Assembly (NCBI RefSeq): GCF_024756255.1 | Contig: NZ_JANUHB010000001.1 | Location: forward strand, 868,001-932,000 | DNA from: Massilia agilis | GTDB taxonomy: Bacteria > Pseudomonadota > Gammaproteobacteria > Burkholderiales > Burkholderiaceae_D | Reading direction: 5' to 3' | DNA: 64,000 nucleotides | Shown here: piece after piece, positions 15,605 to 37,438 of the stretch | Numbering within the stretch: position 1 is the first letter of the stretch | Layout of the letters: every line of letters starts with the position of its first letter | The notes under the pieces: model-generated | Told to the model about the DNA's origin: nothing | The model's input: only the letters and a program-made list of their open reading frames with translations | Databases searched by the model: none | Program-made: the position numbers and the translations under genes

Positions 15605-17032
15605 TCATTGTTGCGCCAGCGGCGTTGCCACCATCCGCTCGGCCTCGGTCACCCAGCCGCCGCCCATCGCCTTGTACAGGTTCACCAGCGAGACGAACAC
15701 GTTGCCCTGGGTTTGGGAATACGCCACCTCGGCGCTGTACAGGTTGCGCTCGGCGTCGAGCACTTCGATATAACTGGTGTAGCCGTTGTCGTAACGCAGC
15801 CGTGCCAGCTCCAGGTAGCGGCGCAGCGTGGCCACCTGCTGTTCCTGGTAGGCGAGCTGCTCGCGCGCCTTGGTGTGCGACACCAGCGAATCGGACACCT
15901 CCCGGAACGCGGTCTGGATCGCCTGCTGGTAGGTCAGCAAGGCCTCGCGCTGCTGGCCCTCGGCGGTCTGCACGCTGCCCGCGATACCGCCGGCGGTGAA
16001 GATCGGCGCGGTGGCCGCGGCGCCGAACGCCCAGGCCTTGTTCGCGCCCTTGAACAGGCCGGAGAACTCGTTGCTGACGGCGCCGAACAGGCCCGTGAGC
16101 GAGATGGTCGGGAAGTATTGCGCGCGCGCCGCGCCGATCTGGGCGTTGGCCGCGACCAGTCGTTGTTCGGCCTGGCGCAGGTCCGGGCGCCGCTCGATCA
16201 GCTGCGACGGCAGCCCCGCGGGCACGGCCGGCAACTGCATGGCCGCCAGCTTGAGGCCTCCCTCGATGGGGCCGGGATTGCGGCCCAACAGCACCGACAG
16301 CGCGTCCTCGGCCTGGCCGATCTGGGCCTGGATCTGCGGGATGGTGACCAGCGAGGCCTCGTAGTCCGACTTGGTCTGGGCCAGCTCCAGCTCGGACACG
16401 GTGCCGCCCTCGAAGCGGTCCTTGAACAGCAGGTAGGACGCGCGGCGCGATGCCACGGTGTCCTGCGCAATTTCGAGCTGGCGATTGAGCTCGCGCAGCG
16501 TGATGTACGACGACGCCACCGACGACACCAGGGTCAGGATGGTCGCGCGCCGCCCCTCTTCGCTGGCCAGCACGTTGGCGCGCGCGGCCTCGGTCTGGCG
16601 CCGGCGCTTGCCGAACACGTCGATCTCCCAGTTCAGCGACAGCGCCGCGTCGTAGGTCTCGATGACCGAGCCGATCGCCCCGGGCGTGAGCGCCCGTTCG
16701 GACGGCGGCAAGCGCTGGCGCTGCCCGTTCAGCTGCGCGCCCACCTGCGGGAACAGGACCGAGCGCGTGCTGACGTACTGGCCGAGGAACTGGTCGATCC
16801 GCGCGGCGGCGATCTTGACGTCCTTGTTCTCATTGAGCGCGATGACGATCAACTGGTCCAGCTGCGGATCGTTGAACTGGCGCCACCAGGCGGTATTGGC
16901 CATGTCCCTCGCAGCGCGGATCTCGAACCGGAACGCGGCCGGCGCGTCCACCGCCGGGCGGCGGTAGTCGGGGCCGACGACGCAACCGGACATGACGGTT
17001 ACGGCCGTGGCCAGCACCAGGGCTTTTCGCAT
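15605..17032 (-). CDS. RND efflux outer membrane lipoprotein (OprM/NodT family)
   Basis: 475-residue outer-membrane channel of a tripartite efflux pump. The lipoprotein signal ends MSGCVVGPDYRRP with C17. Two OEP repeats follow, with the family segments WWRQFNDPQLDQL near the N-terminus and LIERRPDLRQAEQRL in the middle. It starts two bases after the stop codon of the RND permease gene, so the three efflux genes form one transcription unit. Substrates cannot be read from the sequence. Confidence 0.95.
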   Translation of the reverse strand: MRKALVLATAVTVMSGCVVGPDYRRPAVDAPAAFRFEIRAARDMANTAWWRQFNDPQLDQLIVIALNENKDVKIAAARIDQFLGQYVSTRSVLFPQVGAQLNGQRQRLPPSERALTPGAIGSVIETYDAALSLNWEIDVFGKRRRQTEAARANVLASEEGRRATILTLVSSVASSYITLRELNRQLEIAQDTVASRRASYLLFKDRFEGGTVSELELAQTKSDYEASLVTIPQIQAQIGQAEDALSVLLGRNPGPIEGGLKLAAMQLPAVPAGLPSQLIERRPDLRQAEQRLVAANAQIGAARAQYFPTISLTGLFGAVSNEFSGLFKGANKAWAFGAAATAPIFTAGGIAGSVQTAEGQQREALLTYQQAIQTAFREVSDSLVSHTKAREQLAYQEQQVATLRRYLELARLRYDNGYTSYIEVLDAERNLYSAEVAYSQTQGNVFVSLVNLYKAMGGGWVTEAERMVATPLAQQ

Positions 17033-17034
17033 TG

Positions 17035-20000
17035 TTAGTCTCCTTCATGCGGCGCGTGCGGCACGTGCCCGGCAATCCCGCCCGGCGCGGGCAGGCGTTC
17101 GCCGGACTCGCCCGGCGGCGCTTTCCTGCGGCCGAAACGCTCCACCGTGCTCTCGATCACGTAGTAGAACATCGGGATGAAATAGACCGCGATCACGGTG
17201 GCCGCCAGCATCCCGCCGATCACGCCGGTGCCGATCGAAATGCGACTGTTGGCCGACGCGCCGGTCGCGATCGCCAACGGCACGCAGCCAAGGATGAACG
17301 CGATCGATGTCATCACGATCGGGCGCAGCCGCTCGCGCGCGGCGGTCATGGCCGCGTCGTAGAACGACTTGCCCTGCTCCCGGTTGAGCACCGCGAACTC
17401 GAAGATCAGGATCGCGTTCTTGGCCGCCAGCGCGATCAGCATCGTCAGGCCGATCTGGAAGTACACGTCGTTGTTCAGAGCGCGCAGCATCACCGCCACC
17501 AGCGCGCCGAACAGCGCGAACGGCACCGCCATCAGCACGCCGACCGGCAGCGACCATTTCTCGTACTGCGCCGCCAGGATCAGGAACACCATCACCAGAC
17601 CGAACGCGAACACCGAGGTCGAGGTGCTGCCGGCCTGCTTCTCCTCGAACGCTTCGCCGCTCCAGGCCAGCCCGAAGTCGGACGGCAGCGCCTGCGCGCC
17701 GATGCGCTCGAGCGCGGCGATGGCCTGGCCCGAGCTGTAGCCGGGCGCGGCGTTGGCGGTGATCTTCACGGCCGGGAAGTTGTTAAAGCGGGTCATGAGG
17801 TCGGGCCCGGTCACGTAGCGGCTGGTCACGATCGAGGACAGCGGCAGCATCTTGCCGTCCTTGTTGCGCACGTACAGGCGTTCGAGGTCTTCCGGCTGCA
17901 GCCGGTAGCCCGGCTCGGCCTGCAGGATCACCTGCCACAGGCGGCTGCTCTTGATGAACTGCGACACGTACAGCGAGCCGAACATCGTCTGCAGCGTGCC
18001 GTACACGTCTTCCACCGGCACCCCGAGCGTTTCGGCCTTGTCGCGGTCCACGTCCACCATCAGCTGCTGCGAGTTGGCGTTGAAGGTCGCCGTCACGCGC
18101 GCCAGCTCCGGCGCCGCCTTGGCCTTGGCCAGGTAGTCGGCCACGGAGGCGGCCATCTGCTGCACGTTCTTGTCGCCCTTGCTCTGCACCCAGACCTCCA
18201 GGCCGCCGGTGGTGCCCAGGCCCGGGATCGACGGCGGGTTCACCGGCAGGATCACGCCGCGCGGGTCGTTGCCCAGCGCCTTGTAGGCCTGCAGCAGCAC
18301 CGCTTTCGCGTTCTGGCTGCGGATGTTTTCGCTGGAGTAGCGCTCGTCGAAGTCCTTGAACCCGACGAAGAAGGTGCCGGCGTTGTTCTTGTTCTGGTTG
18401 TCGAGCAGGCTGTAGCCGTCGATCACGGCCACGCCCGCCACCGCCGGGTTCGTGACGAAGTAGTCAGACACCCGCTTGCCAACCGCGCCGGTGCGGTCCA
18501 GGCTGGCCGCGTCGGGCATGATGACCGCGCCAAGCAAATAGCCCTGGTCCTCGGGCGGCAGGAAGGCCGTTGGCACTTTCTTGATCATTACCACGGACAG
18601 CGCGATCATGCCTGCAAACAGCAGCAAGGCGAGCACCGAACGCTTGATCATGAAGGCGACACCGCGCGCGTAGCCCTCGGTCATGCGCTCGAAGCTGCGC
18701 TCGAACCAGCGGAAGAACCAGTTCTTCTTGCCATGCGCCGGCTTGAGCAGCAGCGCCGCCAGCGCCGGCGACAGCGTAAGCGCGACCAGGCCCGAGATCA
18801 CCACCGAAATCGCGATCGTGATGGCGAACTGCTTGTACAACTGCCCGGTAATCCCGCCCAGGAAGGCGACCGGCACGAACACCGCGCACAGCACCAGCAC
18901 GATCGCCACCACCGGGCCGGCTACCTCGTCCATTGCGCGCCGGGCCGCTTCTTTCGGGTCGAGCTTGTGCACTGTCATGTTGCGCTCGACGTTTTCGATC
19001 ACCACGATCGCATCATCGACCACGATGCCGATCGCCAGCACCATGCCGAACAGCGTGAGCATGTTGATCGAAAAGCCCAGCGCCTGCATGCCGATGAAGG
19101 TGCCGACGATCGACACCGGCACCGCCAGCACCGGGATCAGCGTCGCCCGCAGGCTCTGCAGGAACAGGTAGACCACCAGCACCACCAGGATCACCGCCTC
19201 GAAGAAAGTCTTGACCACGTCGTGGATCGAGGCGCGCGTGAAGTTGGTGGTGTCCATCACCACCTTGTATTCGATCCCCTCGGGGAACTCCTTCTTCATC
19301 TGGGCCAGCGTCGCCTTGACCTGGTTGGAGACGTCCAGCGCGTTGGCGCCCGGTTGCTGGTACACCGCCATCATCGTGGCCGGCTTGCCCTGGTAAGTGC
19401 CGCGGATCGAGTAGTCCTTCTGGCCCAGCTCGGCGTGGCCGATATCCTTCAGGCGCACGATGGCGGCGCCGCCGCTGGCGGCGCGGATGATGATGTTGTC
19501 GAACTGGGCCGGGTCGGTCATGCGCCCGGCGGTGGTGACGGTGAACGACTGCTCGACCGGCTTGCCGGTCGGGGACTGGCCCAGCCGACCCACCGCGTAC
19601 TGCTGGTTCTGGGCCGCGACCGCGTTCTGCACCTCGGCCGCGGTCACGCCCAGCTGCGCCATGCGGTCGGGCTTGAGCCAGATGCGCATCGCGTAGTCGG
19701 GCGTGCCGAAGATCGCGGTCTGGTTGGCGCCCGGGATGCGCTTCAAGGCGTCCAGCACGTAGATGTTGGCGTAGTTGGCCACGTACACCGGGTCGTAACG
19801 CTCGCTGGGCGAATAGATCGCGATCACCATCATGAACGCCGACGACTTCTTCTGCACCTGCACGCCCTGCGCCGTCACGGCCGAGGGCAGCTGCGGCAGC
19901 GCCAGGTTGACCCGGTTCTGCACATCCACCTGCGCCAGTTCCGGGTCGGTGCCGATCTCGAAGAACACGTTCAGGGTCAGGTTGCCGGTCGACGAGCTCG

Positions 20001-20247
20001 ACGAGTTCATGTAGATCATGTTGTCGGCGCCGTTGACCTGCTGTTCGATCGGGGCGGCCACGTTGTTCGCCACCACGTTGGCGTCCGCGCCCGGGTAGGT
20101 GGCGGACACCGTGATCTGCGGCGGCGTGATGTCCGGGTACTGCGCGACCGGCGACTTGACCATGGCCACCGCGCCCGCAAGCGTGATGATGATCGAGATC
20201 ACCGAGGCGAAGATCGGATGGTCGATGCAGAAGCGGGACACGTTCAT
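17035..20247 (-). CDS. RND efflux permease, HAE1 family (AcrB/MexB-like)
   Basis: 1070-residue inner-membrane proton-driven exporter. It starts MNVSRFCIDHPIFASVISI, typical of HAE1 pumps. The Asp-Asp proton relay is visible in the transmembrane helix GIVVDDAIVVIENVER, and the second-half block LAAKNAILIFEFA marks helix 10. The length matches AcrB-like pumps that export hydrophobic drugs. It follows the adaptor gene by 19 bases and precedes the outer-membrane gene by two. It is placed in HAE1 rather than the metal-exporting HME branch because of the overall similarity to AcrB. Confidence 0.97.
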   Translation of the reverse strand: MNVSRFCIDHPIFASVISIIITLAGAVAMVKSPVAQYPDITPPQITVSATYPGADANVVANNVAAPIEQQVNGADNMIYMNSSSSSTGNLTLNVFFEIGTDPELAQVDVQNRVNLALPQLPSAVTAQGVQVQKKSSAFMMVIAIYSPSERYDPVYVANYANIYVLDALKRIPGANQTAIFGTPDYAMRIWLKPDRMAQLGVTAAEVQNAVAAQNQQYAVGRLGQSPTGKPVEQSFTVTTAGRMTDPAQFDNIIIRAASGGAAIVRLKDIGHAELGQKDYSIRGTYQGKPATMMAVYQQPGANALDVSNQVKATLAQMKKEFPEGIEYKVVMDTTNFTRASIHDVVKTFFEAVILVVLVVYLFLQSLRATLIPVLAVPVSIVGTFIGMQALGFSINMLTLFGMVLAIGIVVDDAIVVIENVERNMTVHKLDPKEAARRAMDEVAGPVVAIVLVLCAVFVPVAFLGGITGQLYKQFAITIAISVVISGLVALTLSPALAALLLKPAHGKKNWFFRWFERSFERMTEGYARGVAFMIKRSVLALLLFAGMIALSVVMIKKVPTAFLPPEDQGYLLGAVIMPDAASLDRTGAVGKRVSDYFVTNPAVAGVAVIDGYSLLDNQNKNNAGTFFVGFKDFDERYSSENIRSQNAKAVLLQAYKALGNDPRGVILPVNPPSIPGLGTTGGLEVWVQSKGDKNVQQMAASVADYLAKAKAAPELARVTATFNANSQQLMVDVDRDKAETLGVPVEDVYGTLQTMFGSLYVSQFIKSSRLWQVILQAEPGYRLQPEDLERLYVRNKDGKMLPLSSIVTSRYVTGPDLMTRFNNFPAVKITANAAPGYSSGQAIAALERIGAQALPSDFGLAWSGEAFEEKQAGSTSTSVFAFGLVMVFLILAAQYEKWSLPVGVLMAVPFALFGALVAVMLRALNNDVYFQIGLTMLIALAAKNAILIFEFAVLNREQGKSFYDAAMTAARERLRPIVMTSIAFILGCVPLAIATGASANSRISIGTGVIGGMLAATVIAVYFIPMFYYVIESTVERFGRRKAPPGESGERLPAPGGIAGHVPHAPHEGD

Positions 20248-20266
20248 GTCAAGGCTCCGGCTGGCG

Positions 20267-21463
20267 CTAGCGCGGCTGCGGCGCGCCAGCGCCGGTGCTG
20301 GCCACCACCGGCGCGGGCGCGAACGTGGTCACCTTCAGCGGCGCGTTCGGCGCCACGCGTCCTGCGCCGTCCACCACCACCCGCTCGCCGCTCTTCAGTC
20401 CGTCGCTGATGAACCACTCGTCGCCGTACCAGTCGCCGACCTCCACCACGCGCTGGCGGGCCTTGCCGTCATTGCCGACCACCCAGACGTAGTGCCCCTT
20501 CGCACCCTGCTGCACGGCGCGCTGCGGAATCCGGATCGCGGCCGGACGGGTCGAGCCATACACGCGGGCGCGCACGAACTGGCCCGGGCGCAGCACCCCA
20601 TCTGGATTCGGCAGTTCGGTGCGCACCAGGAAGGTGCCGGTCGCCGGATCGAAGGACGGCGCGGCAAAGTTGATGTGGCCGCGGTGCGGAAAGATCGAGC
20701 CATCGGCCATCACCACCTCGACCGTGAATTGCAGGTTGGCCGGAAACCTGAGCTTGCCCTTGGCGATCTGGTCGCGGTAGCTCAGCTGCTGGTTCTCGGA
20801 CACACTGAAGTTGACCCAGATCGGGTCGATCTGCGACACCGTCGTCAACAGGCCCTGCTGCCCCACCGTCAGGTAGCTGCCCTCCTGCTGCTTGGCGAAG
20901 CTGGACAGCCCCTTGAGCGGCGAGTAGATCGTGGTGTAGCCCAGGTTGAGGTTGGCCTGGCGCACCTGGCCTTCGGCCGCCAGCACCGCGGCCTGCGACT
21001 CGCGCTCGAAGCCGATGGCGTCGTCCAGCTCCTTCTTGCTGACCGCGTTGCGGGCCGCCAGCGGGCGCACGCGCGCCAGGTTGGCGCTGGCCACCGCGTG
21101 GCGCGCCTTCTGCTGCTCGAGCTGCCCCTGCGCCGACAGCAGCGCCGCCTCGAACGGCTTCCTGTCCATCTGGAACAGCGGCTGGCCGGCGCGCACCATG
21201 TCGCCTTCCGTGTAGAGCCGGCGGTCGAGGAAGCCTTCGACCCGGGCCTGGATTTGTACCTCGCGCGAGCTTTGCGTCTGCGCCACGAATTCGAACTGCA
21301 CCGGCGTGTCGCGCGGCTCGACGGTGAGCGCGCTGACCTGCAGCGGACCGGGTGCCGGCTGCGCCTCCTGCCTGGTGCAGCCGTCCAGCAGGGCGGCAAC
21401 GGCGCCGACGGCAGCCAGCCAGCGCCAGGCGGCAAACGGCGGCGGTAACGATCGACATGTCAT
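20267..21463 (-). CDS. RND efflux periplasmic adaptor (MFP) lipoprotein
   Basis: 398-residue membrane-fusion protein linking the RND permease to the outer-membrane channel. The ATG at 21463 starts a lipoprotein signal ending LLDGC (C29); longer in-frame starts would add non-signal sequence. The barrel-sandwich hybrid domain begins about VQIQARVEGFLDRRLYTEGD, the alpha-hairpin follows with SKKELDDA, and the beta-barrel includes ATGTFLVRTELPNPDG. First gene of the five-gene efflux operon. Two DosR-like sequences lie 85-135 bases upstream. Confidence 0.95.
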   Translation of the reverse strand: MTCRSLPPPFAAWRWLAAVGAVAALLDGCTRQEAQPAPGPLQVSALTVEPRDTPVQFEFVAQTQSSREVQIQARVEGFLDRRLYTEGDMVRAGQPLFQMDRKPFEAALLSAQGQLEQQKARHAVASANLARVRPLAARNAVSKKELDDAIGFERESQAAVLAAEGQVRQANLNLGYTTIYSPLKGLSSFAKQQEGSYLTVGQQGLLTTVSQIDPIWVNFSVSENQQLSYRDQIAKGKLRFPANLQFTVEVVMADGSIFPHRGHINFAAPSFDPATGTFLVRTELPNPDGVLRPGQFVRARVYGSTRPAAIRIPQRAVQQGAKGHYVWVVGNDGKARQRVVEVGDWYGDEWFISDGLKSGERVVVDGAGRVAPNAPLKVTTFAPAPVVASTGAGAPQPR

Positions 21464-21626: not shown

Positions 21627-22643
21627 TCAGCCAAGCAGCCGTGCCGCGCGCTCGAACATGCTCTGCTCGGGCAGCAGCTCGCCGCGCGCGAAGCGCACCA
21701 GCGCGAACGCCCGCTTGCGCGGCGGACTGGCCGGTATGCGCGCCACTTCGAACGTGATGTCGTCGCCCGCCTCGGCGCTGTCATGGGACAGCACGACGTT
21801 CATCTTGTTCAGGCGGACGGTCTTGCGTTCGACATAGATGTGAGCCGCCGGTTCGGCCAGCACGGCGCACAGGTGCCCGAGCTGGCGCTCCAGCGTTTCG
21901 GCACGCACGCCCAGCCCTTCCAGCTCGCGCCCGTTGTCGGCCATCTGCTGGCGCAGGTGCTCCAATTGGGCCGCGCTGGCGCGCGCTTCGTCGCCCAGCG
22001 CCGCGCGCACCCCCACGCCCTGGCGCTCGAGCAGCAGCAATCGCGTCTTGAGCAACGCCTGTTCCTTTTCCAGCTCGCCGCGGCGCTCCTGGTCGGCCGC
22101 AAAGCGCGTCATGCCCTCCAGCGCCAGCTGGTCTACCAGGCGGCGCACGATCTCCTGTCTCAGTTCCAGCTCGGTGCGGCCGCACACGCGCACCTGGTGG
22201 TCGCTGAAGCTGATCGTCTCCTGGATCACGTCGCGGCGCATGGTCTCGCCTTCCAGCGCGACGCCAAGTATGTGCTTCTCGGTCATCGCCATCCCGAGCA
22301 GGGCGTACGCCTCGGGCAGGCCGGGGGAATGGTCAAAGAACGCGCGCAGGTCTTCCGAGCGCGAAAGGACGGGCGCGATGTCATCGGGCGAGGCGAAGAA
22401 CGCATGGATGCTGGGGTCGCCCGCCCACGCCTGCGCGCTCGCTTCGCGCACCGGCGGCACCTCGCGCGCCAGGCCAACCAGGTAGCGCACCGCGATGGCA
22501 ACCGCGGGCGCAAGCCGCGCCTCGGCCTGGCGCAGCATGCGCAGCTGCGGGCAGAACGTGAGCACGCGCGCCACGCCCTCGTCGATGCGGCGCTGCTCGT
22601 CGTGCTCGCGCGAACCGTGCAGTATCTTGTCGAGCAGCCCCAT
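21627..22643 (-). CDS. Uncharacterised coiled-coil protein, last gene of the DUF3141 operon
   Basis: 338-residue cytoplasmic-looking protein with no signal peptide and no family I can name. The N-terminal half is helical (MGLLDKILHG start; RYLVGLAREVPPVR). A heptad-rich coiled coil runs from about residue 185 to 270 (RRGELEKEQALLKTRLLLLER and a following LEHLRQQMADN segment). A basic C-terminus holds SPPRKRAFALVRFARGELL. It starts eleven bases after the RRM gene and closes the eight-gene operon. The domain layout, with a short conserved-looking FSDHQVRVCGRTELELR block, suggests a scaffold or regulatory role; this is a guess. Confidence 0.75.
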   Translation of the reverse strand: MGLLDKILHGSREHDEQRRIDEGVARVLTFCPQLRMLRQAEARLAPAVAIAVRYLVGLAREVPPVREASAQAWAGDPSIHAFFASPDDIAPVLSRSEDLRAFFDHSPGLPEAYALLGMAMTEKHILGVALEGETMRRDVIQETISFSDHQVRVCGRTELELRQEIVRRLVDQLALEGMTRFAADQERRGELEKEQALLKTRLLLLERQGVGVRAALGDEARASAAQLEHLRQQMADNGRELEGLGVRAETLERQLGHLCAVLAEPAAHIYVERKTVRLNKMNVVLSHDSAEAGDDITFEVARIPASPPRKRAFALVRFARGELLPEQSMFERAARLLG

Positions 22644-22654
22644 TGGCGGCCTCC

Positions 22655-22894
22655 CTACATCACCTGTATGTTGATCTTGCGGTTCTTCCAGAACAGGTTC
22701 TGGATGCGGTCGCCGAGCATGCGCAGCTCCTGCGGCGGCGCCTGGTTAAAGGTGAGCAGGACCGCCGGCCGGACGCCGCTGCCGGGGACATGCTCGATCG
22801 CGTCGAACGCCGGAAAGCCGTAGCGCACCAGCAGGTCGCGGATATCGTCGTCGGTGGCGCTGTCGTCCACGTTGCCGATCCAGAGCTGGGCCAT
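22655..22894 (-). CDS. Small single-RRM RNA-binding protein
   Basis: 79 residues, a single RNA recognition motif and almost nothing else. RNP2 is LWIGNV at residues 4-9 and an RNP1-like strand is RPAVLLTF; the aromatic residues common in RNP1 are reduced to one Phe. The start at 22894 gives the normal N-terminal beta strand, seven bases after fabI; an upstream in-frame start at 22927 would add eleven residues overlapping fabI. Small RRM proteins occur widely in bacteria, with cold-shock or unknown roles. Finding one inside a fermentation-type operon is unusual. Confidence 0.8.
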   Translation of the reverse strand: MAQLWIGNVDDSATDDDIRDLLVRYGFPAFDAIEHVPGSGVRPAVLLTFNQAPPQELRMLGDRIQNLFWKNRKINIQVM

Positions 22895-22901
22895 GATCGC
22901 C

Positions 22902-23684
22902 TCATGCCATGATGTGCACGCCGCCATCGACGTACAGCGTCTCGCCCGACATCCGCTTGGCGAACGGTGTGGCCAGGAAGGCGCAGGTGTAGCCGACGTC
23001 CATGATGTCCACCAGCTCGCCCAGCGGCGCGCGCTGGGCGGCCTCGTTGAGCATGCGGTCGAAGTCCTTCAGGCCCGATGCGGCGCGCGTCTGCAGCGGT
23101 CCCGGCGAAATGGCGTGCACACGGATGTGCTTCGGCCCGAGCTCGTACGCGAGGTAGCGCGCCGACGCCTCCAGCGCCGCCTTGATCGGCCCCATCACGT
23201 TGTAGTTGGGGACCACCTTGTCGGCGCCGTAATAGGTCATCGTGAACATGGCGCCGCCGTCCTTCATCAAGGGCGCGCAGCGGCGGGCCAGGCGAATGAA
23301 CGAGTGGCATGACACGTCCATCGCCTGCGCGAAGCCCTGCGCCGAGCAGTTCAGCAGGCCGCCCTGCAGGTCGTCCTTGGGCGCCCATGCCAATGAATGC
23401 ACGAAGATGTCGAGCTTGCCCCATTCCTTTTCGATGCGGTCGAACACGGCATCGATTTCGTCTTCCTTGGCCACGTCCAGTGGCATGAAGATCTTCGACT
23501 CCATCTGCTGCGCCAGCGGTTCCACGTAGCCGCGCGTTTTCTCGTTGACGTAGGTGACGGCGAGCTCGGCGCCTACTTCGCGGAACGCCCTGGCGCAGCC
23601 ATAGGCGATCGAGTGCTCGTTGGCGATGCCCGTCACCAGCGCCTTGGCGCCCGTGAGGATGGGGCGCGGGGTTGCGTTTGTCAT
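22902..23684 (-). CDS. fabI: Enoyl-ACP reductase, FabI-like SDR
   Basis: 260-residue short-chain reductase that reduces the trans-2 double bond of enoyl-ACP (or enoyl-CoA) with NADH. The FabI nucleotide loop is GIANEHSIAYGCARAF at residues 19-34. The catalytic pair is Y161 and K168 in NYNVMGPIKAA, matching the Y-x6-K pattern, with Y151/Y152 nearby. The GPIKA segment differs from the canonical GLAKA of primary FabI, as in the FabI copies found in acyl-phosphate operons. Overlaps the CoA-transferase B gene by four bases (ATGA). It is probably not the cell's main fatty-acid FabI, given its operon. Confidence 0.92.
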   Translation of the reverse strand: MTNATPRPILTGAKALVTGIANEHSIAYGCARAFREVGAELAVTYVNEKTRGYVEPLAQQMESKIFMPLDVAKEDEIDAVFDRIEKEWGKLDIFVHSLAWAPKDDLQGGLLNCSAQGFAQAMDVSCHSFIRLARRCAPLMKDGGAMFTMTYYGADKVVPNYNVMGPIKAALEASARYLAYELGPKHIRVHAISPGPLQTRAASGLKDFDRMLNEAAQRAPLGELVDIMDVGYTCAFLATPFAKRMSGETLYVDGGVHIMA

Positions 23685-24346
23685 GATGTCGCTCCTTCAA
23701 TCTGCATTTGCGGGACCTGCTCCGGCACCACCAGCGATGCCTCGGTGGCGGCCAGCACTTCCGGCACGCTCACGCCCGGCGCGGTCTCGAGCAGGGTCGG
23801 GATGCCGCCGTCGAACGAGATCACGGCCAGCTCGGTGACGACCAGGTCGATGCGCCGCGCGGACGTCAGCGGCAGCGTGCACTGCCGCACGATCTTGGGC
23901 TTGCCCTTGGCGCTGTGCTGCATGGCCACGATCACCCGGCGCGCGCCGGTGACCAGGTCCATCGCACCGCCCATCCCGGGCACCATCTTCCCGGGAATCA
24001 TCCAGTTGGCCAGGTGCCCCTGCTCGTCCACCTGCAAGCCACCGAGCACGGTGACGTCGAGGTGGCCGCCGCGGATCAGGCCAAACGACATCGCGCTGTC
24101 GAAGGTGCAGGCGCCGGGCAGCGCGCTCACGTATTGGCCGGCGGCGTCGGTCAGGTAGGGTTGGCTCATCCCCTCCTCGGGAATCGGTCCGGTGCCGATC
24201 AGGCCATTCTCGGACTGGAAGTAGATGCGCACGCCAGCGGGAACGTAGTTGGCGACCGCGGTGGGAATGCCGATCCCCAGGTTCACCAGCATGCCGGCGG
24301 AAAGCTCGCGTGCGATGCGTTTGGCAATGACGGTCTGTGCGTCCAT
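23681..24346 (-). CDS. 3-oxoacid CoA-transferase subunit B
   Basis: 221-residue beta subunit of a class I CoA-transferase that moves CoA between succinyl-CoA or acetyl-CoA and a 3-oxo or other short-chain acid. The catalytic glutamate is E46 in the SENG motif (YFQSENGLIGTGP). The GIGIP loop and the GGHLDVTVLGGLQVD block are standard. Its partner subunit A lies ten bases upstream. Specificity among acetoacetate, 3-oxoadipate and acetate cannot be settled; the neighbouring kinase and phosphotransacylase favour a short fermentation acid. Confidence 0.93.
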   Translation of the reverse strand: MDAQTVIAKRIARELSAGMLVNLGIGIPTAVANYVPAGVRIYFQSENGLIGTGPIPEEGMSQPYLTDAAGQYVSALPGACTFDSAMSFGLIRGGHLDVTVLGGLQVDEQGHLANWMIPGKMVPGMGGAMDLVTGARRVIVAMQHSAKGKPKIVRQCTLPLTSARRIDLVVTELAVISFDGGIPTLLETAPGVSVPEVLAATEASLVVPEQVPQMQIEGATS

Positions 24347-24356
24347 GGCGGTTCCC

Positions 24357-25001
24357 TTAATGCGCGACCAGGTAGTCGACCAGTACCGCGGGCGTGACCA
24401 CGTGGTCGGGCGAAATCATCCCGACCGGGACGATATGGGCGGCGTCGACGATGACCGTGTCGGCCGCCATCGCGATCACCGGGTTGAAGTTACGCGCCGT
24501 GAACGCATAGGTCAGGTTGCCGTAATAGTCCGACAGGAAGGCCTCGACCAGCGCGAAGTCGGCGCGAATCGGCGTCTCGAGCAGGTACTGCCGGCCATCC
24601 AGTTCGATCTTGCGCTTGCCCTCCTCGGCCAGCGTGTCCACGCCGGTGGCGGTCAGGATGCCGCCCAGGCCGTAACCGCCGGCGCGGATGCGCTCGATCA
24701 GCGTCCCCTGCGGCACCAGTTCGACCTTGATGTCGTTGGCGATCATCTTGCTCTGCGTCTCGGGGTTCAGGCCGATGTGGCTGACCACGAACTGGTCCGC
24801 CGCGCCGGCGGTGACGAGCTTGCCGATGCCGCGCCCCGGGCAACTGGTGTCGTTGGCGATCACGGTCAGGCCGCGCTTGCCCTGCCGGACCAGCTCATCC
24901 ATCAGCCGCTCGGGCGTGCCCACGCCCATGAAGCCGCCCACCATCAGGCTGGCGCCATCCGGAATGAGCGCAACGGCTTTGTCGAGCGCGACGGTCTTCA
25001 T
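24357..25001 (-). CDS. 3-oxoacid CoA-transferase subunit A
   Basis: 214-residue alpha subunit of the class I CoA-transferase. It starts MKTVALDKAVALIPDGAS and contains the family motif GGFMGVGTPERLMDELV near residue 22. The C-terminal block KSKMIANDIK..LVPQGTLIERIRAGG is typical of SCOT/AtoD-type alpha subunits. The ATG overlaps the stop codon of acetate kinase by four bases. It forms a heteromer with the next gene product. A longer in-frame extension upstream lies inside ackA and is rejected. Confidence 0.93.
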   Translation of the reverse strand: MKTVALDKAVALIPDGASLMVGGFMGVGTPERLMDELVRQGKRGLTVIANDTSCPGRGIGKLVTAGAADQFVVSHIGLNPETQSKMIANDIKVELVPQGTLIERIRAGGYGLGGILTATGVDTLAEEGKRKIELDGRQYLLETPIRADFALVEAFLSDYYGNLTYAFTARNFNPVIAMAADTVIVDAAHIVPVGMISPDHVVTPAVLVDYLVAH

Positions 25002-26185
25002 ATCCGCCCCGCCGTGGCGGCCAGCGTATGCCGCGCGATCATCAGCTCCTCGTTGGTCGGCACCACCCACGCGGACACGCGGCTCTCGCCCGTGCTGATG
25101 CGCGGCCCGTCCACCGCGTTGGCGGCAGGGTCGAGCGCCACGCCAAGCCAGCCGGCCAGGCGGCACACGCGGTCGCGGACCAGCGGTGCGTGCTCGCCGA
25201 TCCCGGCTGTGAACACCAGCGCATCGAGCCCTTCCAGCGCCGCGGCCAGCGAGCCGAGCTCGCGCGCGATGCGGTAGATGAACAGCTCCACCGCAAAGCG
25301 CGCGCGCACGTCGTCGCTCTGGAGCAGCACCCGCATGTCGCTGGACAGGCCGGACACGCCCAGCAGGCCCGAGCGCTTGTAGATCAGGTCCTCCACGGTG
25401 CGCGCGTTCATCTGCAGCGCGTCGATCAGGTACAGGATCACGCCCGGGTCCAGGCTGCCGCAGCGCGTGCCCATCGGCAGCCCGTCCACGGCGGTGAAGC
25501 CCATCGTGCTGGCCACGCTGCGCCCGGCCTTGAGCGCGCACATGCTGGCGCCGTTGCCCAGGTGCGCCACCACGGTGCGGCCCGCCGCCGCTTGCGGCGC
25601 CACCTGCGGCAGTGTGCTGGCAATGTACTCGTACGACAGGCCGTGAAAGCCATAGCGGCGCACCCCGCGCGCGGTGATCTCGTGCGGTAGTGCGAAGGCC
25701 TGCGCGGCCTCGGGCTGGCTGCGATGGAAGGCCGTGTCGAAGCAGGCCACCTGGGGCACGTCGGGCCGCGCCTCGAGCAGCACGCGGATCGGCGCGAGAT
25801 TGTGCGGCTGGTGCAGCGGCGCAAGCGGCACCAACGTGGCCAGCCGCTCGAGCACCGCGTGATCGACCAGGGTGGGCGCGTCGAATTCCAGGCCGCCGTG
25901 CACCACCCGGTGCCCGACCGCCACCAGGCGGTGGCCTTCGCGATGATTGCGCAGGAACTCGGCGATGTAGCGGATCGCGCCGGCATGGCCGATCTCGGTG
26001 CCGGAGGGCCAGCGGTTCTCCTCGGTACGGTCGCCGGCCGCGTTGGCCACCTTGAAGTGCGGTTCGGTAAACAGCCCTTCGACCTGCCCTTTCAGCAGCG
26101 GCCTTGGCTCGGCGCCAACGGCTTCGTAGCCGCAGAACTTGATGCTCGATGAGCCGGCGTTCACGACCAGGATGATGTCGGCCAT
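24998..26185 (-). CDS. ackA: Acetate kinase
   Basis: 395-residue kinase that converts acetyl phosphate (or propionyl/butyryl phosphate) and ADP to the acid and ATP. The start MADIILVVNAGSSSIKF carries the N-terminal phosphate-binding motif of the acetate/propionate family. Further motifs are VGHRVVHGG, the catalytic FDTAFH segment and FTAGIGEHAPLVR near the C-terminus. It begins four bases after the phosphate acyltransferase gene, giving an ATP-yielding acyl-CoA to acid pair. The upstream in-frame extension to 26257 lies inside the previous gene and is not used. Confidence 0.96.
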   Translation of the reverse strand: MADIILVVNAGSSSIKFCGYEAVGAEPRPLLKGQVEGLFTEPHFKVANAAGDRTEENRWPSGTEIGHAGAIRYIAEFLRNHREGHRLVAVGHRVVHGGLEFDAPTLVDHAVLERLATLVPLAPLHQPHNLAPIRVLLEARPDVPQVACFDTAFHRSQPEAAQAFALPHEITARGVRRYGFHGLSYEYIASTLPQVAPQAAAGRTVVAHLGNGASMCALKAGRSVASTMGFTAVDGLPMGTRCGSLDPGVILYLIDALQMNARTVEDLIYKRSGLLGVSGLSSDMRVLLQSDDVRARFAVELFIYRIARELGSLAAALEGLDALVFTAGIGEHAPLVRDRVCRLAGWLGVALDPAANAVDGPRISTGESRVSAWVVPTNEELMIARHTLAATAGRI

Positions 26186-26189
26186 CGCG

Positions 26190-27128
26190 TCACCCCATCG
26201 CCTTGCCGGCCTCGCGCCGCTGTTTGGCCACCAGCACCGCGACCGCGCACGAGGCACGCCGCGTCATCGTCGAGTCGGCGCGGCTGGTCAGGATGACCGG
26301 CACCCGTGCGCCGAGCACGATGCCGGCTGCGTCTGCCCCGGCCAGGAACGACAGGCTCTTGGCCAGCATGTTCCCGGCTTCCAGGTCCGGCACCAGCAGC
26401 ACGTTGGCGCGGCCCGCCACGGGCGAATCGATGCCCTTGATGCGCGCCGCCTCCGGGTCGATGGCGTTGTCCAGCGCGAGCGGACCGTCGACCACGGCGC
26501 CGGTCACCTGGTGGCGGTCCACCATCTTGCACAGCGCCGCCGCCTCGATCGTCGAAGGCACCTTCGGGTTCACGGTCTCCATCGCCGACAGGATCGCCAC
26601 CCGCACCTCGGGGAACATCAGCGCATGCCCCAGGTCGATCGCGTTTTGCAGGATGTCCTTTTTCTCTTCCAGGGTGGGCGCAATGTTCACGGCGGCGTCG
26701 GTGATGATCAGGGCGTTCTCATGGCCCGGCACATCCATGACGAAGCAGTGGCTGACCCGGCGGCCGGTGCGCAGCCCTGCATCGCGCCGCACCACCGCGG
26801 CCATCAGCTCGTCGGTATGCAGGCTGCCCTTCATCAGCGCTTCGGCCTTCCCTTCGCGCACCAGCTGCACCGCGCAATCGGCGGCCGCTTCGCTGTACGG
26901 CGCGTCCACCACCTGGTAGTCCGACAGCGACACGCCGCATTCGCCGGCGACCGCCTTGATGCGCTCGGCGGGACCGACCAGGATCGGCGCGATCAGGTTC
27001 AGTTGCGCGGCCTCGACCGCGCCGCAAAGCGAACTCTTGTCGCACGGGTGCACCACGGCGGTCGGCAGCGCCGGCAACGTCTGGCAGTAGTCGATCAGGC
27101 GCTGGTACTTCTCGTGTTTGTTGTCCAT
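26190..27128 (-). CDS. Phosphate acetyl/butyryltransferase family protein
   Basis: 312-residue transferase that exchanges CoA of a short acyl-CoA for phosphate, making acyl phosphate for the downstream kinase. It corresponds to the PTA_PTB domain only, as in phosphotransbutyrylase or the C-terminal half of enoyl-CoA hydratase/phosphate acetyltransferase fusions; the hydratase (MaoC) part is absent. Typical blocks are the GSLHTDELM and VMDVPGHENALIITDAAVN segments. It sits 33 bases after DUF3141 and four before ackA. Whether it prefers acetyl, propionyl or (hydroxy)butyryl groups is not visible. Confidence 0.9.
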   Translation of the reverse strand: MDNKHEKYQRLIDYCQTLPALPTAVVHPCDKSSLCGAVEAAQLNLIAPILVGPAERIKAVAGECGVSLSDYQVVDAPYSEAAADCAVQLVREGKAEALMKGSLHTDELMAAVVRRDAGLRTGRRVSHCFVMDVPGHENALIITDAAVNIAPTLEEKKDILQNAIDLGHALMFPEVRVAILSAMETVNPKVPSTIEAAALCKMVDRHQVTGAVVDGPLALDNAIDPEAARIKGIDSPVAGRANVLLVPDLEAGNMLAKSLSFLAGADAAGIVLGARVPVILTSRADSTMTRRASCAVAVLVAKQRREAGKAMG

Positions 27129-27161
27129 GTCGTTCCCTTTCAGGAGGTTGTGGCGAACGGC

Positions 27162-29477
27162 TCAGCGCACCGCCTGGATGCGCCGCTCCACCGGCGGGCG
27201 CGCGCCCAGCACGGAGCGGATCCGCTCGAGCATGGCAACCTGCTCCTGGCTCGGCCGCACCGCCTGCACGCGCGGGTCCGCGATCAGCTTGTCGAGCAGC
27301 GTGAGCAGCCGGGTCCGGTCGCCGGGGTCCTTCAGCAGGGCCGGCAGCGACAGCAGCGCCTGCTCCGGCTCGTAGCGCGCGATGATCTCCTGCTCGCCCC
27401 GGGTGCGGCGCGCCTGCTCGGGCGGAACCTTGGGCAGGAAGTCGGCGTAATCGCGCGCCAGTTCGTCGATCGTTTCCAGGCGCGACAGCGGCAACGGCTC
27501 GCCGTGCCGCATCAGCAGCACGCCGGCGCGGGCGAAGGCCTCGGCGTAGCCGCCTTGCGTGATCGAGGCGAGCGCCTCCTTCACGTATGGCAGGTCGCGC
27601 GGCTCGACCACCGGCTTGATGCGCGCCGCCTCGGCCTTGTGCTTGTCGGCCAGGTACATCGCGAACATGTTGGCGTACACCCCGAAGAACGCGGCCTCGG
27701 TGGTGGCGTCGCGCATCGCCCGGTACAGCTCGAGCGAGGCGCTCACGAGCTCGGCGCCGATTTCCTCGAGCTGGCGCGCCGGCTTGTCCGCCTCGACCGG
27801 CTTGCGATGCTCGCGCACAGCCTGCGCGGCCGGCCCGAGCCAGGCGAACCACGGGTTCAGGTCCGACATGGCCCAGTGCTGCACGCGCAGCGGGTGGAAC
27901 TGGCGCAGCAGCCGCGCGCTCCAGTCGGACGACTGCGCCTGCACGGCCGGCTGCGCGAACAGCTCATAGGCGCGCTGGGTGAATTCGGACACCGCCTCGA
28001 CCGCCTCGAACGGGCGCTCGTCCACGCGCGAAAAGCGATTGACGCGCGCGTTGATCTCCTCCAGCCGCAGCTCGCGGAACTCGACCTCGTACTCGACCTT
28101 GCCGTCCTCGCCCTTGTGCTCGAGGATGTCCATGCCGTACAGGCCAGGCGGCATGCGCTCGATGGTCTGCAGCACCGACACCAGCTGGGTGTACTCCTTC
28201 TTGGCGACCTTGCCCGACACGAAAATGCCGAGGTGGCCGATGTTCTTGTGCATGAGGCCGACGATCACCTGCCCGCGCGCCTTGATCTCGTCGGTGCTGC
28301 CGTAGATGTCGGCCACCCAATTGAAGGCCTGCTGCGGCGGCGTGATGTTGTCGCCCATCGACGCGAACAGCACGATAGGCACCTTGATGTCGCGCAGGTC
28401 GAAAGCGCTGCCGCCGGCCGACTTCACGTCGCCCGACCACAGCTTGTTCCCGACGAACAGGTTCTTCGTGATGAACTCGATCTCCTCGCGGTTCATCAGG
28501 TAGTAGCCGCCCCACCAGCGTTCAAAGTCGAGGAAGCGCGGCGGCTCCGTGTCGACGTTGGCGTACACCGTGCGGTACTTGCCCCACAGCGAATTGGCCG
28601 GGTTCAGGTTCTCGAAGTTGTAGACCAGCCAGGCGCCGTCGAAGATGCCGTTTCCCTGGTCGGCCGTATAGGACGCGAGCCACGAGCCGCCCAGCATGCC
28701 GCCGGTGTAGCGCATTGGATTGTCGCCCTCGCCCGTGCTCCAGGCGCCGGCCCAGTACGACATCGGCGCGCCGTTGATCAGGATCGGGCCGGTATCTTCC
28801 GGCGACGATGAGCTCAGCATCATCGCGGCCCAGCCGCCCTGGCAGTTGCCGACGATGGCCGGCTTGGGGCTGTCCGGGTGCAGCTGGCGCACCTTGCGCA
28901 CGAACTGCTGCTCGGCGGCGCACACGTCGAGCAGGGTCTGGCCCGGCTCGGGGTCGCGGAAGAAGATCACGAAATACACCGGGTGCCCGGCACGCAGGGC
29001 GACGCCGACCTGGGAGTCGTCCTTGAAGCCGCCGATGCCGGGGCCATGGCCGGCGCGCGGGTCAATGATGAGGTAGGGCCGGCGGCGCGGATCGACCGTC
29101 ACGCCCTCCGGCGGAATGATGCGCACCAGCGCGTAGTTGACCGGGCGGTCGAAGGTGCGCCCGTCCAGCACCATCTCGAACTGGAAGTGCAGCATCGGCT
29201 GCAGGCCGTGCATGGCCTGCTCGACGAAGTTGTTGCCGCGCTGGCGCATCGTGTCCCAGAACAGGATCGAGCGCTGCATGGTGTCGATGGCGTACTGCCA
29301 GGCGCTGGCCGGATCGACGCCGGCCAGCAGCGCCGGCACCCGGCCGTCCTTGCCATCGACAGCGGCGCGCACGCGGTCGCCGAATTCGTTGAGCGCCGTC
29401 TCGGTGCGCTTGCGGTAAAGCAGGCCGATCTTGATGCCGATATCATTGCTGCGCGCTAGCTGGGTTCCTGGATCCAT
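27162..29477 (-). CDS. DUF3141 family alpha/beta hydrolase (PHA-synthase-like, Cys nucleophile)
   Basis: 771-residue protein of the DUF3141 family, sometimes labelled 3-hydroxyalkanoate synthetase-like. An alpha/beta-hydrolase core covers about residues 115-430. The nucleophile elbow is GNCQGG with C212, the G-x-C-x-G box of PhaC enzymes, with D376 (SMGDNITPP) and H415 (GHLGIF) as likely partners. A long helical C-terminal part without clear similarity follows. A ribosome site GAGGTGA precedes the ATG. First gene of an eight-gene operon with phosphotransacylase, kinase, CoA-transferase and FabI, and preceded by a DosR-like box. An acyl-CoA or polyhydroxyalkanoate-related reaction is likely but not shown. 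Confidence 0.88.
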   Translation of the reverse strand: MDPGTQLARSNDIGIKIGLLYRKRTETALNEFGDRVRAAVDGKDGRVPALLAGVDPASAWQYAIDTMQRSILFWDTMRQRGNNFVEQAMHGLQPMLHFQFEMVLDGRTFDRPVNYALVRIIPPEGVTVDPRRRPYLIIDPRAGHGPGIGGFKDDSQVGVALRAGHPVYFVIFFRDPEPGQTLLDVCAAEQQFVRKVRQLHPDSPKPAIVGNCQGGWAAMMLSSSSPEDTGPILINGAPMSYWAGAWSTGEGDNPMRYTGGMLGGSWLASYTADQGNGIFDGAWLVYNFENLNPANSLWGKYRTVYANVDTEPPRFLDFERWWGGYYLMNREEIEFITKNLFVGNKLWSGDVKSAGGSAFDLRDIKVPIVLFASMGDNITPPQQAFNWVADIYGSTDEIKARGQVIVGLMHKNIGHLGIFVSGKVAKKEYTQLVSVLQTIERMPPGLYGMDILEHKGEDGKVEYEVEFRELRLEEINARVNRFSRVDERPFEAVEAVSEFTQRAYELFAQPAVQAQSSDWSARLLRQFHPLRVQHWAMSDLNPWFAWLGPAAQAVREHRKPVEADKPARQLEEIGAELVSASLELYRAMRDATTEAAFFGVYANMFAMYLADKHKAEAARIKPVVEPRDLPYVKEALASITQGGYAEAFARAGVLLMRHGEPLPLSRLETIDELARDYADFLPKVPPEQARRTRGEQEIIARYEPEQALLSLPALLKDPGDRTRLLTLLDKLIADPRVQAVRPSQEQVAMLERIRSVLGARPPVERRIQAVR

Positions 29478-29577
29478 CTGGTCACCTCGACGTCGGGGTA
29501 AGGAAGTGCCGTGCTCGCAGCGGCTGGGCCGCTGGATGTCGGGTACATGGTCTTATCGCGAGGCCACGGCGGCAATG

Positions 29578-29592
29578 CGACCAAAGTCCAAT
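29578..29592 (-). promoter_or_regulatory. DosR/NarL-like box upstream of the DUF3141 operon (site C)
   Basis: CGACCAAAGTCCAAT on the plus strand; in the transcribed direction ATT-GGAC-TTTG-GTCG. It lies about 100 bases before the DUF3141 start. A weak -10 candidate, GATAAG, follows about 21 bases downstream. Confidence 0.5.
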
Positions 29593-29640
29593 GACGCTTG
29601 ACGGGAGTAGCGCGTGAGGGTGGGCTCGCGAGCCCGCGCG

Positions 29641-30471
29641 TCACAGGCGGTACGGCCAGTAATCGGGATCCGATTCGATGTGCTGTTCCAGCCGCGATGG
29701 CGGCAGCCCGGTCAGCGCGCGCAGCTCGCGCGCCATGTGCGCCTGGTCGGCGTAGCCCAGTTCGGCCGCGAGCGCGGCGAGCGTGTCCCCTTCGGCAGCG
29801 CCGCTGCGCAGCGCGTAGACGGCCTCGTTCATGCGCTGCAGGCGGCGCGCCTGCGCCGGCGTCAGCCCCACCTGGGCGCGGTACTGCCGCTGCATCTGGC
29901 GCTCGCCCACGCCAAGGGTGCGCACCGTGGCAGCCAACCCACGCCGGGTTAGCTGGCGCAGGCTTTCGCCGAGGGTGCGGTTCCAGCGCTGGCGCGCGTC
30001 GAGCCAGCGCGGCAGCAGCCATGATTCGATCCACTGCGTTTGCGCAGCCTCGTCCCCTGCCCTGTCCCGCAATGCGGGCTGCCAGTCGTTCCATTCTTCA
30101 AGCAGCCACGACGCTGCGGCTTCGTCCCGGTCCTGCAGCCGCGCAGGCGCCTGTCCGGTCAGCAGCGCGAACGCGTCCGGGTAGAAGATCACGGACACGC
30201 AGCGCAGCGGGGCGAGCGTGACCGAGGTGACGGGCCGGGTGCGTGGACCGAACACGATCCAGTCCGGCATGGGCTTGAGCGCCCCGTCGTCGTCGGCCAG
30301 CACCGCCACATGGCCCTCGGTGAGCATCGTCACGCCGCAGTACACCATGGCCGGGAACCGGTTCAGGCGCGGCTGCGCGGGCGGCCACGGCTCGTCCAGC
30401 GTGGACATGAAGGCGATACCGAACACCGCCTCGGCCAGCTCGCCCGTCGGCACGTGCAGCGAGGTTTTCAT
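29641..30471 (-). CDS. AraC family transcriptional regulator
   Basis: 276-residue regulator with a variable N-terminal sensing domain and a C-terminal AraC-type double helix-turn-helix (about residues 165-265). The second-HTH region is seen as LAAELGYADQAHMARELRALTGLPPS, the hallmark of the family. The ATG at 30471 is preferred over a TTG one codon upstream. It ends 160 bases before the DUF3141 operon start in the same orientation, but promoter-like sequence and a DosR-like box separate them. MarC lies just upstream. Target unknown. Confidence 0.92.
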   Translation of the reverse strand: MKTSLHVPTGELAEAVFGIAFMSTLDEPWPPAQPRLNRFPAMVYCGVTMLTEGHVAVLADDDGALKPMPDWIVFGPRTRPVTSVTLAPLRCVSVIFYPDAFALLTGQAPARLQDRDEAAASWLLEEWNDWQPALRDRAGDEAAQTQWIESWLLPRWLDARQRWNRTLGESLRQLTRRGLAATVRTLGVGERQMQRQYRAQVGLTPAQARRLQRMNEAVYALRSGAAEGDTLAALAAELGYADQAHMARELRALTGLPPSRLEQHIESDPDYWPYRL

Positions 30472-31338: not shown

Positions 31339-31450
31339 GGCGATCTCCTTTCCAACTCAGATACACGCAGCTTAGACCCGTGACTTCGCCGTTTCTGTGG
31401 GGTAGCGCACGCAATTTAGGAACCAAGCGAAAACTTGCGGAGGGTAGCAG

Positions 31451-31819
31451 ATGACCTATGATGGAGCCGTGAATGCCTTCACCAAACGACTGGAAAACGA
31501 CGTCGCCGCCATCAAGACAGACCTGTCCGTGGTTCGATCGAACTACGCCACGAAGGCAGACCTGAGCGAGGTCGCCAACAGTCTGATCAAATGGATGATT
31601 GCGACCACAATCGGCGTCGTGGCTGCGATGATCAGCATTGCAGTCGGCTTTGTGGCCGTACTCACCTTCCGTCTAGACAACACGTCTCCAAAAGCTGTGG
31701 CGCCCTCGGCCCCAATCGGGATTACGGTCCCTACCCGGTACCGGCCCACGGCCCGCTTCCGAGTGCCCAGCCGGACGGGACCAGATGTAAGAAGGGCACA
31801 GCAGACTCCCTCGAACTAG
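31451..31819 (+). CDS. Small coiled-coil, single-pass membrane protein
   Basis: 122 residues with GGAGGG twelve bases before the ATG. An N-terminal coiled coil (AFTKRLENDVAAIKTDL) leads into one strong membrane helix, about residues 48-75 (WMIATTIGVVAAMISIAVGF). The Arg/Pro-rich tail after VPTRYRP looks unlike a natural end and may come from a frameshift. The layout resembles DUF1640 or XhlA-like small membrane proteins. No function can be assigned. Its stop codon overlaps the antisense CxxCH remnant. Confidence 0.6.
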   Translation: MTYDGAVNAFTKRLENDVAAIKTDLSVVRSNYATKADLSEVANSLIKWMIATTIGVVAAMISIAVGFVAVLTFRLDNTSPKAVAPSAPIGITVPTRYRPTARFRVPSRTGPDVRRAQQTPSN

Positions 31820-33148: not shown

Positions 33149-33163
33149 CGACTAGAGGACCAA

Positions 33164-34393: not shown

Positions 34394-34394
34394 A

Positions 34395-34934: not shown

Positions 34935-34958
34935 ATCAGGATTCCCTCTACGTTGTCG

Positions 34959-37438
<2,480 letters not shown>

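What the first reader, a model, noticed from the sequence alone, without database searches (positions are those of the whole stretch)
21627..29477. Eight-gene operon joining DUF3141, phosphotransacylase, acetate kinase, CoA-transferase, FabI, an RRM protein and a coiled-coil protein
Gaps are 33, 4, -4, 10, -4, 7 and 11 bases, so this is one transcript. The enzymes can carry an acyl-CoA to acyl-phosphate, acid and ATP, with CoA recycling by the transferase and an enoyl reductase as electron sink. With the PhaC-like DUF3141 it may drain reserve or acyl-CoA pools when oxygen is short. The chain of reactions and the purpose are inference.
Basis: partly seen in the sequence, partly recalled or inferred. 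Interest (0 to 1): 0.7.

Follow-up and report, generated by a model that had tools for sequence, protein, structure and literature searches.

The report
Acyl-phosphate operon with RRM–coiled-coil tail
The eight adjacent genes are real and form a longer version of an energy-metabolism operon already known from rhizobia, with two extra proteins of unknown job that recur as a pair beside other energy genes in related bacteria.

Summary
In detail: eight co-directional genes at 21627-29477 (minus strand) with exactly the stated gaps, all under purifying selection against the nearest relative. The core DUF3141-pta-ackA-fabI is a known arrangement: it lies intact on two rhizobial plasmids examined, and papers describe its S. 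meliloti relative as co-transcribed and phosphate-starvation (PhoB) induced; in NGR234 bacteroids pta and ackA rise more than 100-fold. Low oxygen is plausible but not shown: FNR-like sites precede the operon in some relatives, not here, and no good Pho box was found here either. The window's version is extended by a CoA-transferase pair (Massilia and one Rhodocyclaceae genome) and, at the 3' end, by a single-domain RRM-fold protein plus a coiled-coil protein. That pair is the new part. It follows fabI in many Burkholderiales and polyphosphate kinase 2 in a few, so it may be a portable accessory of ATP-forming or storage enzymes, though the coiled-coil gene often occurs without the RRM gene. 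Profile and model support the RRM fold, but RNP1 aromatics are missing, so RNA binding should not be assumed. DUF3141 keeps a PhaC-like Cys-Asp-His triad. Verdict: a new variant of a known operon; moderate interest.

The parts
27162..29477 (-). DUF3141 protein, 771 aa; PhaC-like alpha/beta-hydrolase with Cys212-Asp376-His415
   Evidence: Pfam PF11339 826.1 bits; triad at >=97% in 41 homologues; profile alignment to a PhaC set
26190..27128 (-). Pta, short phosphotransacylase, 312 aa
   Evidence: PRK11890 534.6 bits, cut-off 413
24998..26185 (-). AckA-type acetate/propionate kinase, 395 aa
   Evidence: TIGR00016 363.7 bits, cut-off 293.4; best model PRK07058 452.7, cut-off 486 not met
24357..25001 (-). 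CoA-transferase subunit A, 214 aa
   Evidence: TIGR02429 210.4 bits, cut-off 128.5; best model PRK09920 287.2, cut-off 315 not met
23681..24346 (-). CoA-transferase subunit B, 221 aa
   Evidence: TIGR02428 299.4 bits, cut-off 243.55
22902..23684 (-). FabI enoyl-ACP reductase, 260 aa
   Evidence: PRK07533 444.6 bits, cut-off 337
22655..22894 (-). single-domain RRM-fold protein, 79 aa, acidic, RNP1 aromatics missing
   Evidence: family alignment A6 vs PDB RRMs E 5.1e-10; model b-a-b-b-a-b, pLDDT 87.8; column counts
21627..22643 (-). coiled-coil protein, 338 aa: N-terminal helices, beta hairpin, helical hairpin, C-terminal strands
   Evidence: model pLDDT 87.8; relatives at 66 named loci
29478..29640 (-). 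intergenic region, presumed promoter; in the 400 bases upstream no FNR site within 3 mismatches and no Pho box within 4
29641..30471 (-). AraC-family regulator, neighbour upstream, kept in M. solisilvae (89%); possible regulator
   Evidence: Pfam HTH_18; L129 synteny
15605..21463 (-). membrane-fusion, RND and outer-membrane efflux genes downstream, 163 bases after the operon; neighbours, syntenic in M. solisilvae and in three PPK2-rrm-cc loci

Best explanation
A stress-induced operon for drawing ATP from acyl-CoA, extended by added functions. Pta and AckA turn acetyl-CoA (possibly other short acyl-CoAs) into acyl-phosphate, then ATP and acid. DUF3141, a PhaC-like Cys-Asp-His enzyme, handles hydroxyacyl-CoA or reserve polymer upstream. 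FabI is an accessory enoyl reductase. The CoA-transferase moves CoA between acetyl-CoA and acetoacetate or a similar 3-oxoacid, linking polymer breakdown to Pta-AckA. The rrm-cc pair is an accessory that serves ATP-forming and storage-polymer enzymes, more likely by binding proteins than RNA. Shown: gene content, order, conservation, triad, predicted folds. Inferred: co-transcription here, substrates, direction of flux, inducer, and every role given to rrm-cc.
For: DUF3141-pta-ackA-fabI is intact on S. medicae pSymA and in NGR234; all three partners lie within 9 kb on the same strand in 10 of 21 full-length DUF3141 loci, the window included. PMC8231600 describes the S. meliloti ORF-pta-ack-fabI as co-transcribed and PhoB up-regulated (passages). 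NGR234 AckA 118/182-fold and Pta 166/228-fold in bacteroids (passages). B. phymatum and R. mesoamericanum genes for Pta, AckA and FabI induced about 2-fold by root exudate (passages). Triad. rrm directly follows fabI in 22 of 50 rrm loci and PPK2 in 4 of 50 (L074 and L134 placed by eye; in L086 and L156 fabI is in pieces). PPK2 confirmed by Pfam at the five loci scanned.
Against: No enzyme here has been assayed. The published inducer is phosphate stress; the window has no good Pho or FNR site, and Pho-like sites were not enriched in relatives. 22 of 31 sampled genomes of the genus lack any FabI of 42% identity or more, so the operon is optional. In the search that used rrm alone, 14 of 22 places follow neither fabI nor PPK2; three of the eight that do were among the four seeds of the query. 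42 of 66 named cc loci show no rrm in the fetched stretch, 8 of them on stretches under 15 kb. ctfAB with ack and rrm occurs in only 3 of those 66.
Confidence: 0.55

Rival explanations
1. Low-oxygen fermentation of reserve polymer: hydroxybutyryl-CoA from PHB goes through crotonyl-CoA to butyryl-CoA (FabI as the reductase), then butyrate and ATP.
For: Pta resembles the butyryltransferase model (301.8 bits) far more than TIGR00651 pta (82.8); the genome has a class I PHA synthase elsewhere; bacteroid induction; FNR-like sites in 7 of 21 close homologues against 2.05-2.46 in control windows.
Against: Butyryltransferase cut-off 410.5 not met; FabI scores as an ordinary enoyl-ACP reductase; no FNR site in the window or L129; the like-placed, identical sites in L183 and L086 are not independent; no excess in more distant homologues.
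Confidence: 0.15
2. Phosphate-stress operon: the point is to recover phosphate-ATP balance, or to set acetyl-phosphate as a signal, under PhoB, not to ferment.
For: PhoB control of the S. meliloti relative, as reported; rrm or rrm-cc also sits beside polyphosphate kinase 2.
Against: No Pho box within 4 mismatches upstream in the window and no enrichment in relatives.
Confidence: 0.2
3. rrm and cc belong to the downstream efflux system or are hitchhikers, with no part in the acyl-CoA chemistry.
For: rrm-cc precedes membrane-fusion, RND and outer-membrane efflux genes in the window, L129, L134, L050, L111 and L112; 42 of 66 named cc loci have no rrm found.
Against: The rrm start lies 11-70 bases after the last fabI sense codon in the linked loci listed, also in five stretches with no RND or partner gene recognised (L115, L119, L148, L150, L160).
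Confidence: 0.2

Closest known systems
Sinorhizobium meliloti ORF-pta-ackA-fabI operon (Summers et al. 1999; paper not held; known to me here through passages of PMC8231600 and PMC5789663)
   Same: Same four core genes in the same order in the relatives S. medicae and NGR234
   Different: No ctfAB, rrm or cc found in those two stretches; phosphate control is not visible at the window's promoter
phaC-pta-ack-fabI clusters of Burkholderia sensu lato, groups D1/D2 (PMC8231600, passages)
   Same: Pta, AckA and FabI beside a PHA-synthase-like gene
   Different: That review treats the first gene as phaC, at only 2-24% identity to the S. meliloti ORF; the window has DUF3141 and extra genes
Burkholderia cenocepacia low-oxygen-activated (lxa) locus (PMC6127331, passages)
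   Same: Holds a putative phosphate acetyl/butyryl transferase (BCAM0298) and an acetoacetyl-CoA reductase (BCAM0296)
   Different: Stress-protein island with other companions; ours was not compared with it gene by gene
AB-Elavl, single-RRM protein of Acinetobacter baumannii (PMC9313427, PDB 7qzp)
   Same: Small stand-alone bacterial RRM; among the Foldseek matches of the model
   Different: [quoted passage not shown] ours is acidic, lacks RNP1 aromatics and sits in metabolic operons

Membership tests
DUF3141-pta-ackA-fabI operon type | The four genes co-directional in this order | tested here: met
   Order holds, with ctfAB inserted between ackA and fabI
DUF3141-pta-ackA-fabI operon type | Phosphate-starvation/PhoB control | tested here: inconclusive
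   Best Pho-box match has 5 mismatches; expression not testable
PHA synthase (PhaC) | Cys-Asp-His catalytic triad | tested here: met
   C212, D376, H415 at >=97% of 41; Cys and Asp aligned to PhaC, His outside the aligned block, so the His is inferred
PHA synthase (PhaC) | Class I or III PhaC model cut-off | tested here: not met
   30.2 of 365.3 and 27.6 of 622.65 bits; the genome's other gene, L002, passes class I at 705.8
Phosphate butyryltransferase | TIGR02706 cut-off | tested here: not met
   301.8 of 410.5 bits
Phosphate acetyltransferase TIGR00651 | Curated cut-off | tested here: not met
   82.8 of 311.2 bits
Phosphate acetyltransferase PRK11890 | Curated cut-off | tested here: met
   534.6 of 413 bits
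RRM fold | beta-alpha-beta-beta-alpha-beta fold and RRM profile | tested here: met
   Model, Foldseek 50 PDB hits at E<=0.001, family profile 5.1e-10; the window's own protein has no Pfam match
RNA-binding RRM | RNP1 aromatic residues | tested here: not met
   Aromatic in 1 and 2 of 43 at the two positions; the motif itself is recalled
RNA-binding RRM | Binds RNA | not testable with these tools
   Needs an assay
lxa locus | Universal stress proteins and lxa gene order | not tested
   Window genes were not compared with the lxa locus

The most novel reading that the evidence does not exclude
The rrm-cc pair is a portable scaffold or regulator that docks onto ATP-forming and storage-polymer enzymes (acyl-phosphate route here, polyphosphate kinase 2 elsewhere), using an RRM fold turned from RNA to protein binding, and so ties two different emergency ATP sources together.
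Probability: 0.27. Interest if true: 0.65.

Novelty: new variant of a known kind. Interest (0 to 1): 0.42.

Why it matters
The four-gene core is found in alpha- and betaproteobacteria, is strongly induced in one symbiosis, and its first gene still carries a 'function unknown' name. The added cassette gives a concrete handle: an uncharacterised RRM-fold protein and an uncharacterised coiled-coil protein that recur beside two kinds of ATP-forming enzymes can be pulled down or deleted. If they bind those enzymes, bacteria have a shared organiser for emergency ATP.

Tried and rejected
FNR, sigma-54 and Pho sites upstream: FNR-like sites exceeded controls in close homologues (7 of 21; 0 of 100 shuffles; 1 of 500 random and 2 of 200 GC-matched trials reach it) but are absent from the window, and FNR-like matches are over-abundant in this window in general (21 against 7.34 in shuffles), so oxygen control is not claimed. 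Sigma-54 and Pho were not convincing.

The idea that the operon FabI is the sole essential reductase: the own genome shows one close FabI, but 22 of 31 sampled genomes of the genus lack any of 42% identity or more, so I take it as accessory. Which enoyl reductase they use instead was not found: a FabV-domain search returned nothing, but its control rang nowhere and shows nothing.

Fold of the coiled-coil protein: Foldseek gave no PDB or viral match at E<=0.001. VIA-align matched chiefly the helical hairpin, residues about 172-270, at levels common for coiled coils.

A first iterative rrm profile was contaminated by out-of-frame ORFs overlapping fabI; it was rebuilt with trimmed domains and only that version is used for rrm. 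My 'YSC84' label for the window gene 12594-13322 was wrong (it is DUF3313) and is not used. A first 'own PhaC' was a wrong frame; the PhaC comparison rests.

Papers: (five terms, at least four needed) found none joining RRM, Burkholderia, Pta, enoyl reductase and polyphosphate kinase; DUF3141 appears in three held papers, none with acetate kinase. This covers only the held library.
Full report
What is there. Eight minus-strand genes fill 29477 down to 21627: DUF3141 (771 aa), Pta (312), AckA (395), CoA-transferase A (214) and B (221), FabI (260), a 79-aa protein ('rrm') and a 338-aa protein ('cc'). Gaps are 33, 4, -4, 10, -4, 7 and 11 bases. Six match curated families; rrm and cc match none on their own. 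Between the window and Massilia solisilvae (L129) dN/dS is 0.158, 0.049, 0.130, 0.086, 0.185, 0.048, 0.185 and 0.197 in gene order. G400, in the same genus as the window's genome, shares a contig with the M. solisilvae record, which places the window in that genus.

The core is known. Annotated S. medicae pSymA has DUF3141, phosphate acetyltransferase, acetate kinase and FabI in a row. NGR234 has the same four, found by translated search at 45, 64, 55 and 57% identity. The review PMC8231600 (passages) says that an ORF-pta-ack-fabI unit of S. meliloti is co-transcribed and up-regulated in phosphate starvation through PhoB. PMC5789663 (passages) reports that genes encoding Pta, AckA and FabI in B. 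phymatum and R. mesoamericanum rise about 2-fold with root exudate. PMC3732241 (passages) gives AckA NGR_b13640 118- and 182-fold and Pta NGR_b13630 166- and 228-fold up in bacteroids; that these tags are the pair next to DUF3141 is inferred from map position, since the record held has no annotation.

How common. Of 150 genomes of the order, the window's own included, 18 have a full-length DUF3141 (E below 1e-200), 21 pass the Pfam cut-off and 53 have any match at E<=0.001, most of them weak and confined to the stretch shared with PhaC. Among the 21 full-length loci examined (20 fetched plus the window, several on short contigs), fabI lies within 9 kb on the same strand in 13, pta in 12, ack in 12, ctfA in 3, cc in 2 and rrm in 2; all of pta, ack and fabI in 10.

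The eight-gene form. It recurs complete in L129 (M. solisilvae; the same contig as G400), in L216 (G415, same genus) and, with DUF3300-DUF2950 between rrm and cc, in L130 (a Rhodocyclaceae MAG). L134 (a Massilia MAG, same contig as G419) shows ack to cc before its stretch ends, and G413 (L214) has the unit without a detected rrm. Several Paraburkholderia loci and Eleftheria terrae have DUF3141-pta-ack-fabI-rrm-cc without ctfAB. In the genus sample, FabI of 42% identity or more occurs in 9 of 31 genomes, so the unit is patchy.

The rrm-cc pair. A family profile finds rrm in 50 of the fetched loci, the window included. It directly follows fabI in 22 of 50 and PPK2 in 4 of 50 (three of these four one genus), and the next recognised gene is cc in 27 of 50 (L074 and L134 placed by eye; in L086 and L156 fabI is in pieces). 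PPK2 was confirmed by Pfam at 305-326 bits in these four loci and L053. Many of the 50 were chosen by searching for cc. The search with the rrm alignment alone (399 genomes, 21 with a match, 22 places) gives 4 of 22 after fabI, 4 of 22 after PPK2 and 14 after neither. Three of those eight are seeds of the query; without seeds it is 3 and 2 of 19. Only the gene families in my query set could be recognised. Of 66 named cc loci, 24 have rrm, 14 have pta, ack, fabI and rrm, 3 have ctfAB with ack and rrm, and 42 show no rrm, 8 of the 42 on stretches under 15 kb. PPK2 also precedes cc without rrm in L053. Elsewhere rrm-cc follows Pqi/Mce-like or SulP-like genes, named by eye from sequence.

What rrm is. 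Alignment A6 matches PDB RRM proteins at 5.1e-10; 11 of 43 members, not the window's, match Pfam RRM_1, and 8 of 43 RRM_occluded. The model (pLDDT 87.8) has strand-helix-strand-strand-helix-strand order and 50 Foldseek matches at E<=0.001, mostly RRMs. At the two RNP1 aromatic positions only 1 and 2 of 43 are aromatic, at the RNP2 position 9 of 43; a Trp before the last strand is kept in 35 of 43; pI is 5.07. The RNP motifs are recalled. AB-Elavl, whose RNP2 (ILVRNL) also lacks an aromatic, still binds RNA weakly (passages), so RNA binding is unlikely but not excluded.

What cc is. The model (pLDDT 87.8, pTM 0.80) has N-terminal helices, a long beta hairpin (111-155), a helical hairpin (158-263) and C-terminal strands. 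No whole-protein match was found.

DUF3141. Cys212, Asp376 and His415 are at >=97% of 41 sequences. Profile alignment to nine PhaC-like proteins (probability 96.1) puts GNCQGG on GFCVGG and the Asp on Asp; the His lies outside the aligned block. PhaC class cut-offs are far from met. It is PhaC-like but not a member of those classes. The genome also has a class I PHA synthase (L002; 705.8 bits, cut-off 622.65), another acetate kinase and two other PTA_PTB genes, so the operon is an additional set.

Regulation. FNR-like sites (two mismatches or fewer) lie within 400 bases upstream in 7 of 21 close homologues; dinucleotide shuffles give 1.14 (0 of 100 reach 7), random same-locus windows 2.05 (1 of 500), GC-matched 2.46 (2 of 200). 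Two of the seven (L183, L086) have the same site at nearly the same place, and neither the window nor L129 has one. The window's best FNR match has 4 mismatches and its best Pho match 5. More distant homologues show no excess (4 of 19 against 2.78, 30 of 100 reach it). An AraC-family gene 163 bases upstream, kept in M. solisilvae, is a candidate regulator.

Verdict. Observation confirmed. Chemistry plausible from families. Low oxygen possible but not shown. New are the conserved RRM-fold/coiled-coil accessory and, in Massilia and one Rhodocyclaceae genome, the CoA-transferase insertion.

Noticed in passing
L050, L111, L112, L084: PPK2-rrm(-cc) gene clusters, with membrane-fusion, RND and outer-membrane efflux genes behind in the first three: rrm sits 21-31 bases after polyphosphate kinase 2.
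   Followed up: partly
L086 (Paraburkholderia sp. PGU19 plasmid), 14309-17782: The operon is disrupted: an IS5 transposase lies between pta and a fabI fragment; rrm still follows.
   Followed up: no
L140 (P. ultramafica): pta-ack-fabI-rrm-cc with only a DUF3141 fragment in front and a separate DUF3141 on the other strand.
   Followed up: no
L182 (Cupriavidus respiraculi): Rearranged unit: DUF3141-fabI-cc-pta-ack-rrm, same members in another order.
   Followed up: no
L130, L131, L132, L135, L138, L143, L145, L147, L149, L163, L164: A DUF3300-DUF2950 gene pair recurs near rrm-cc, in L130 between rrm and cc.
   Followed up: partly
window 31339-34394: Low-GC stretch (56.6% in 32001-36000) between the MarC region and purA-like genes (named by eye); its ORF 32153-33148 looks lectin-like by eye but has no Pfam match.
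   Followed up: no
L217, L218, L219 (same genus): pta-ack-fabI without a detected DUF3141, with a weaker rrm-family match (E about 4e-9 to 5e-8) at or just after the end of fabI.
   Followed up: no
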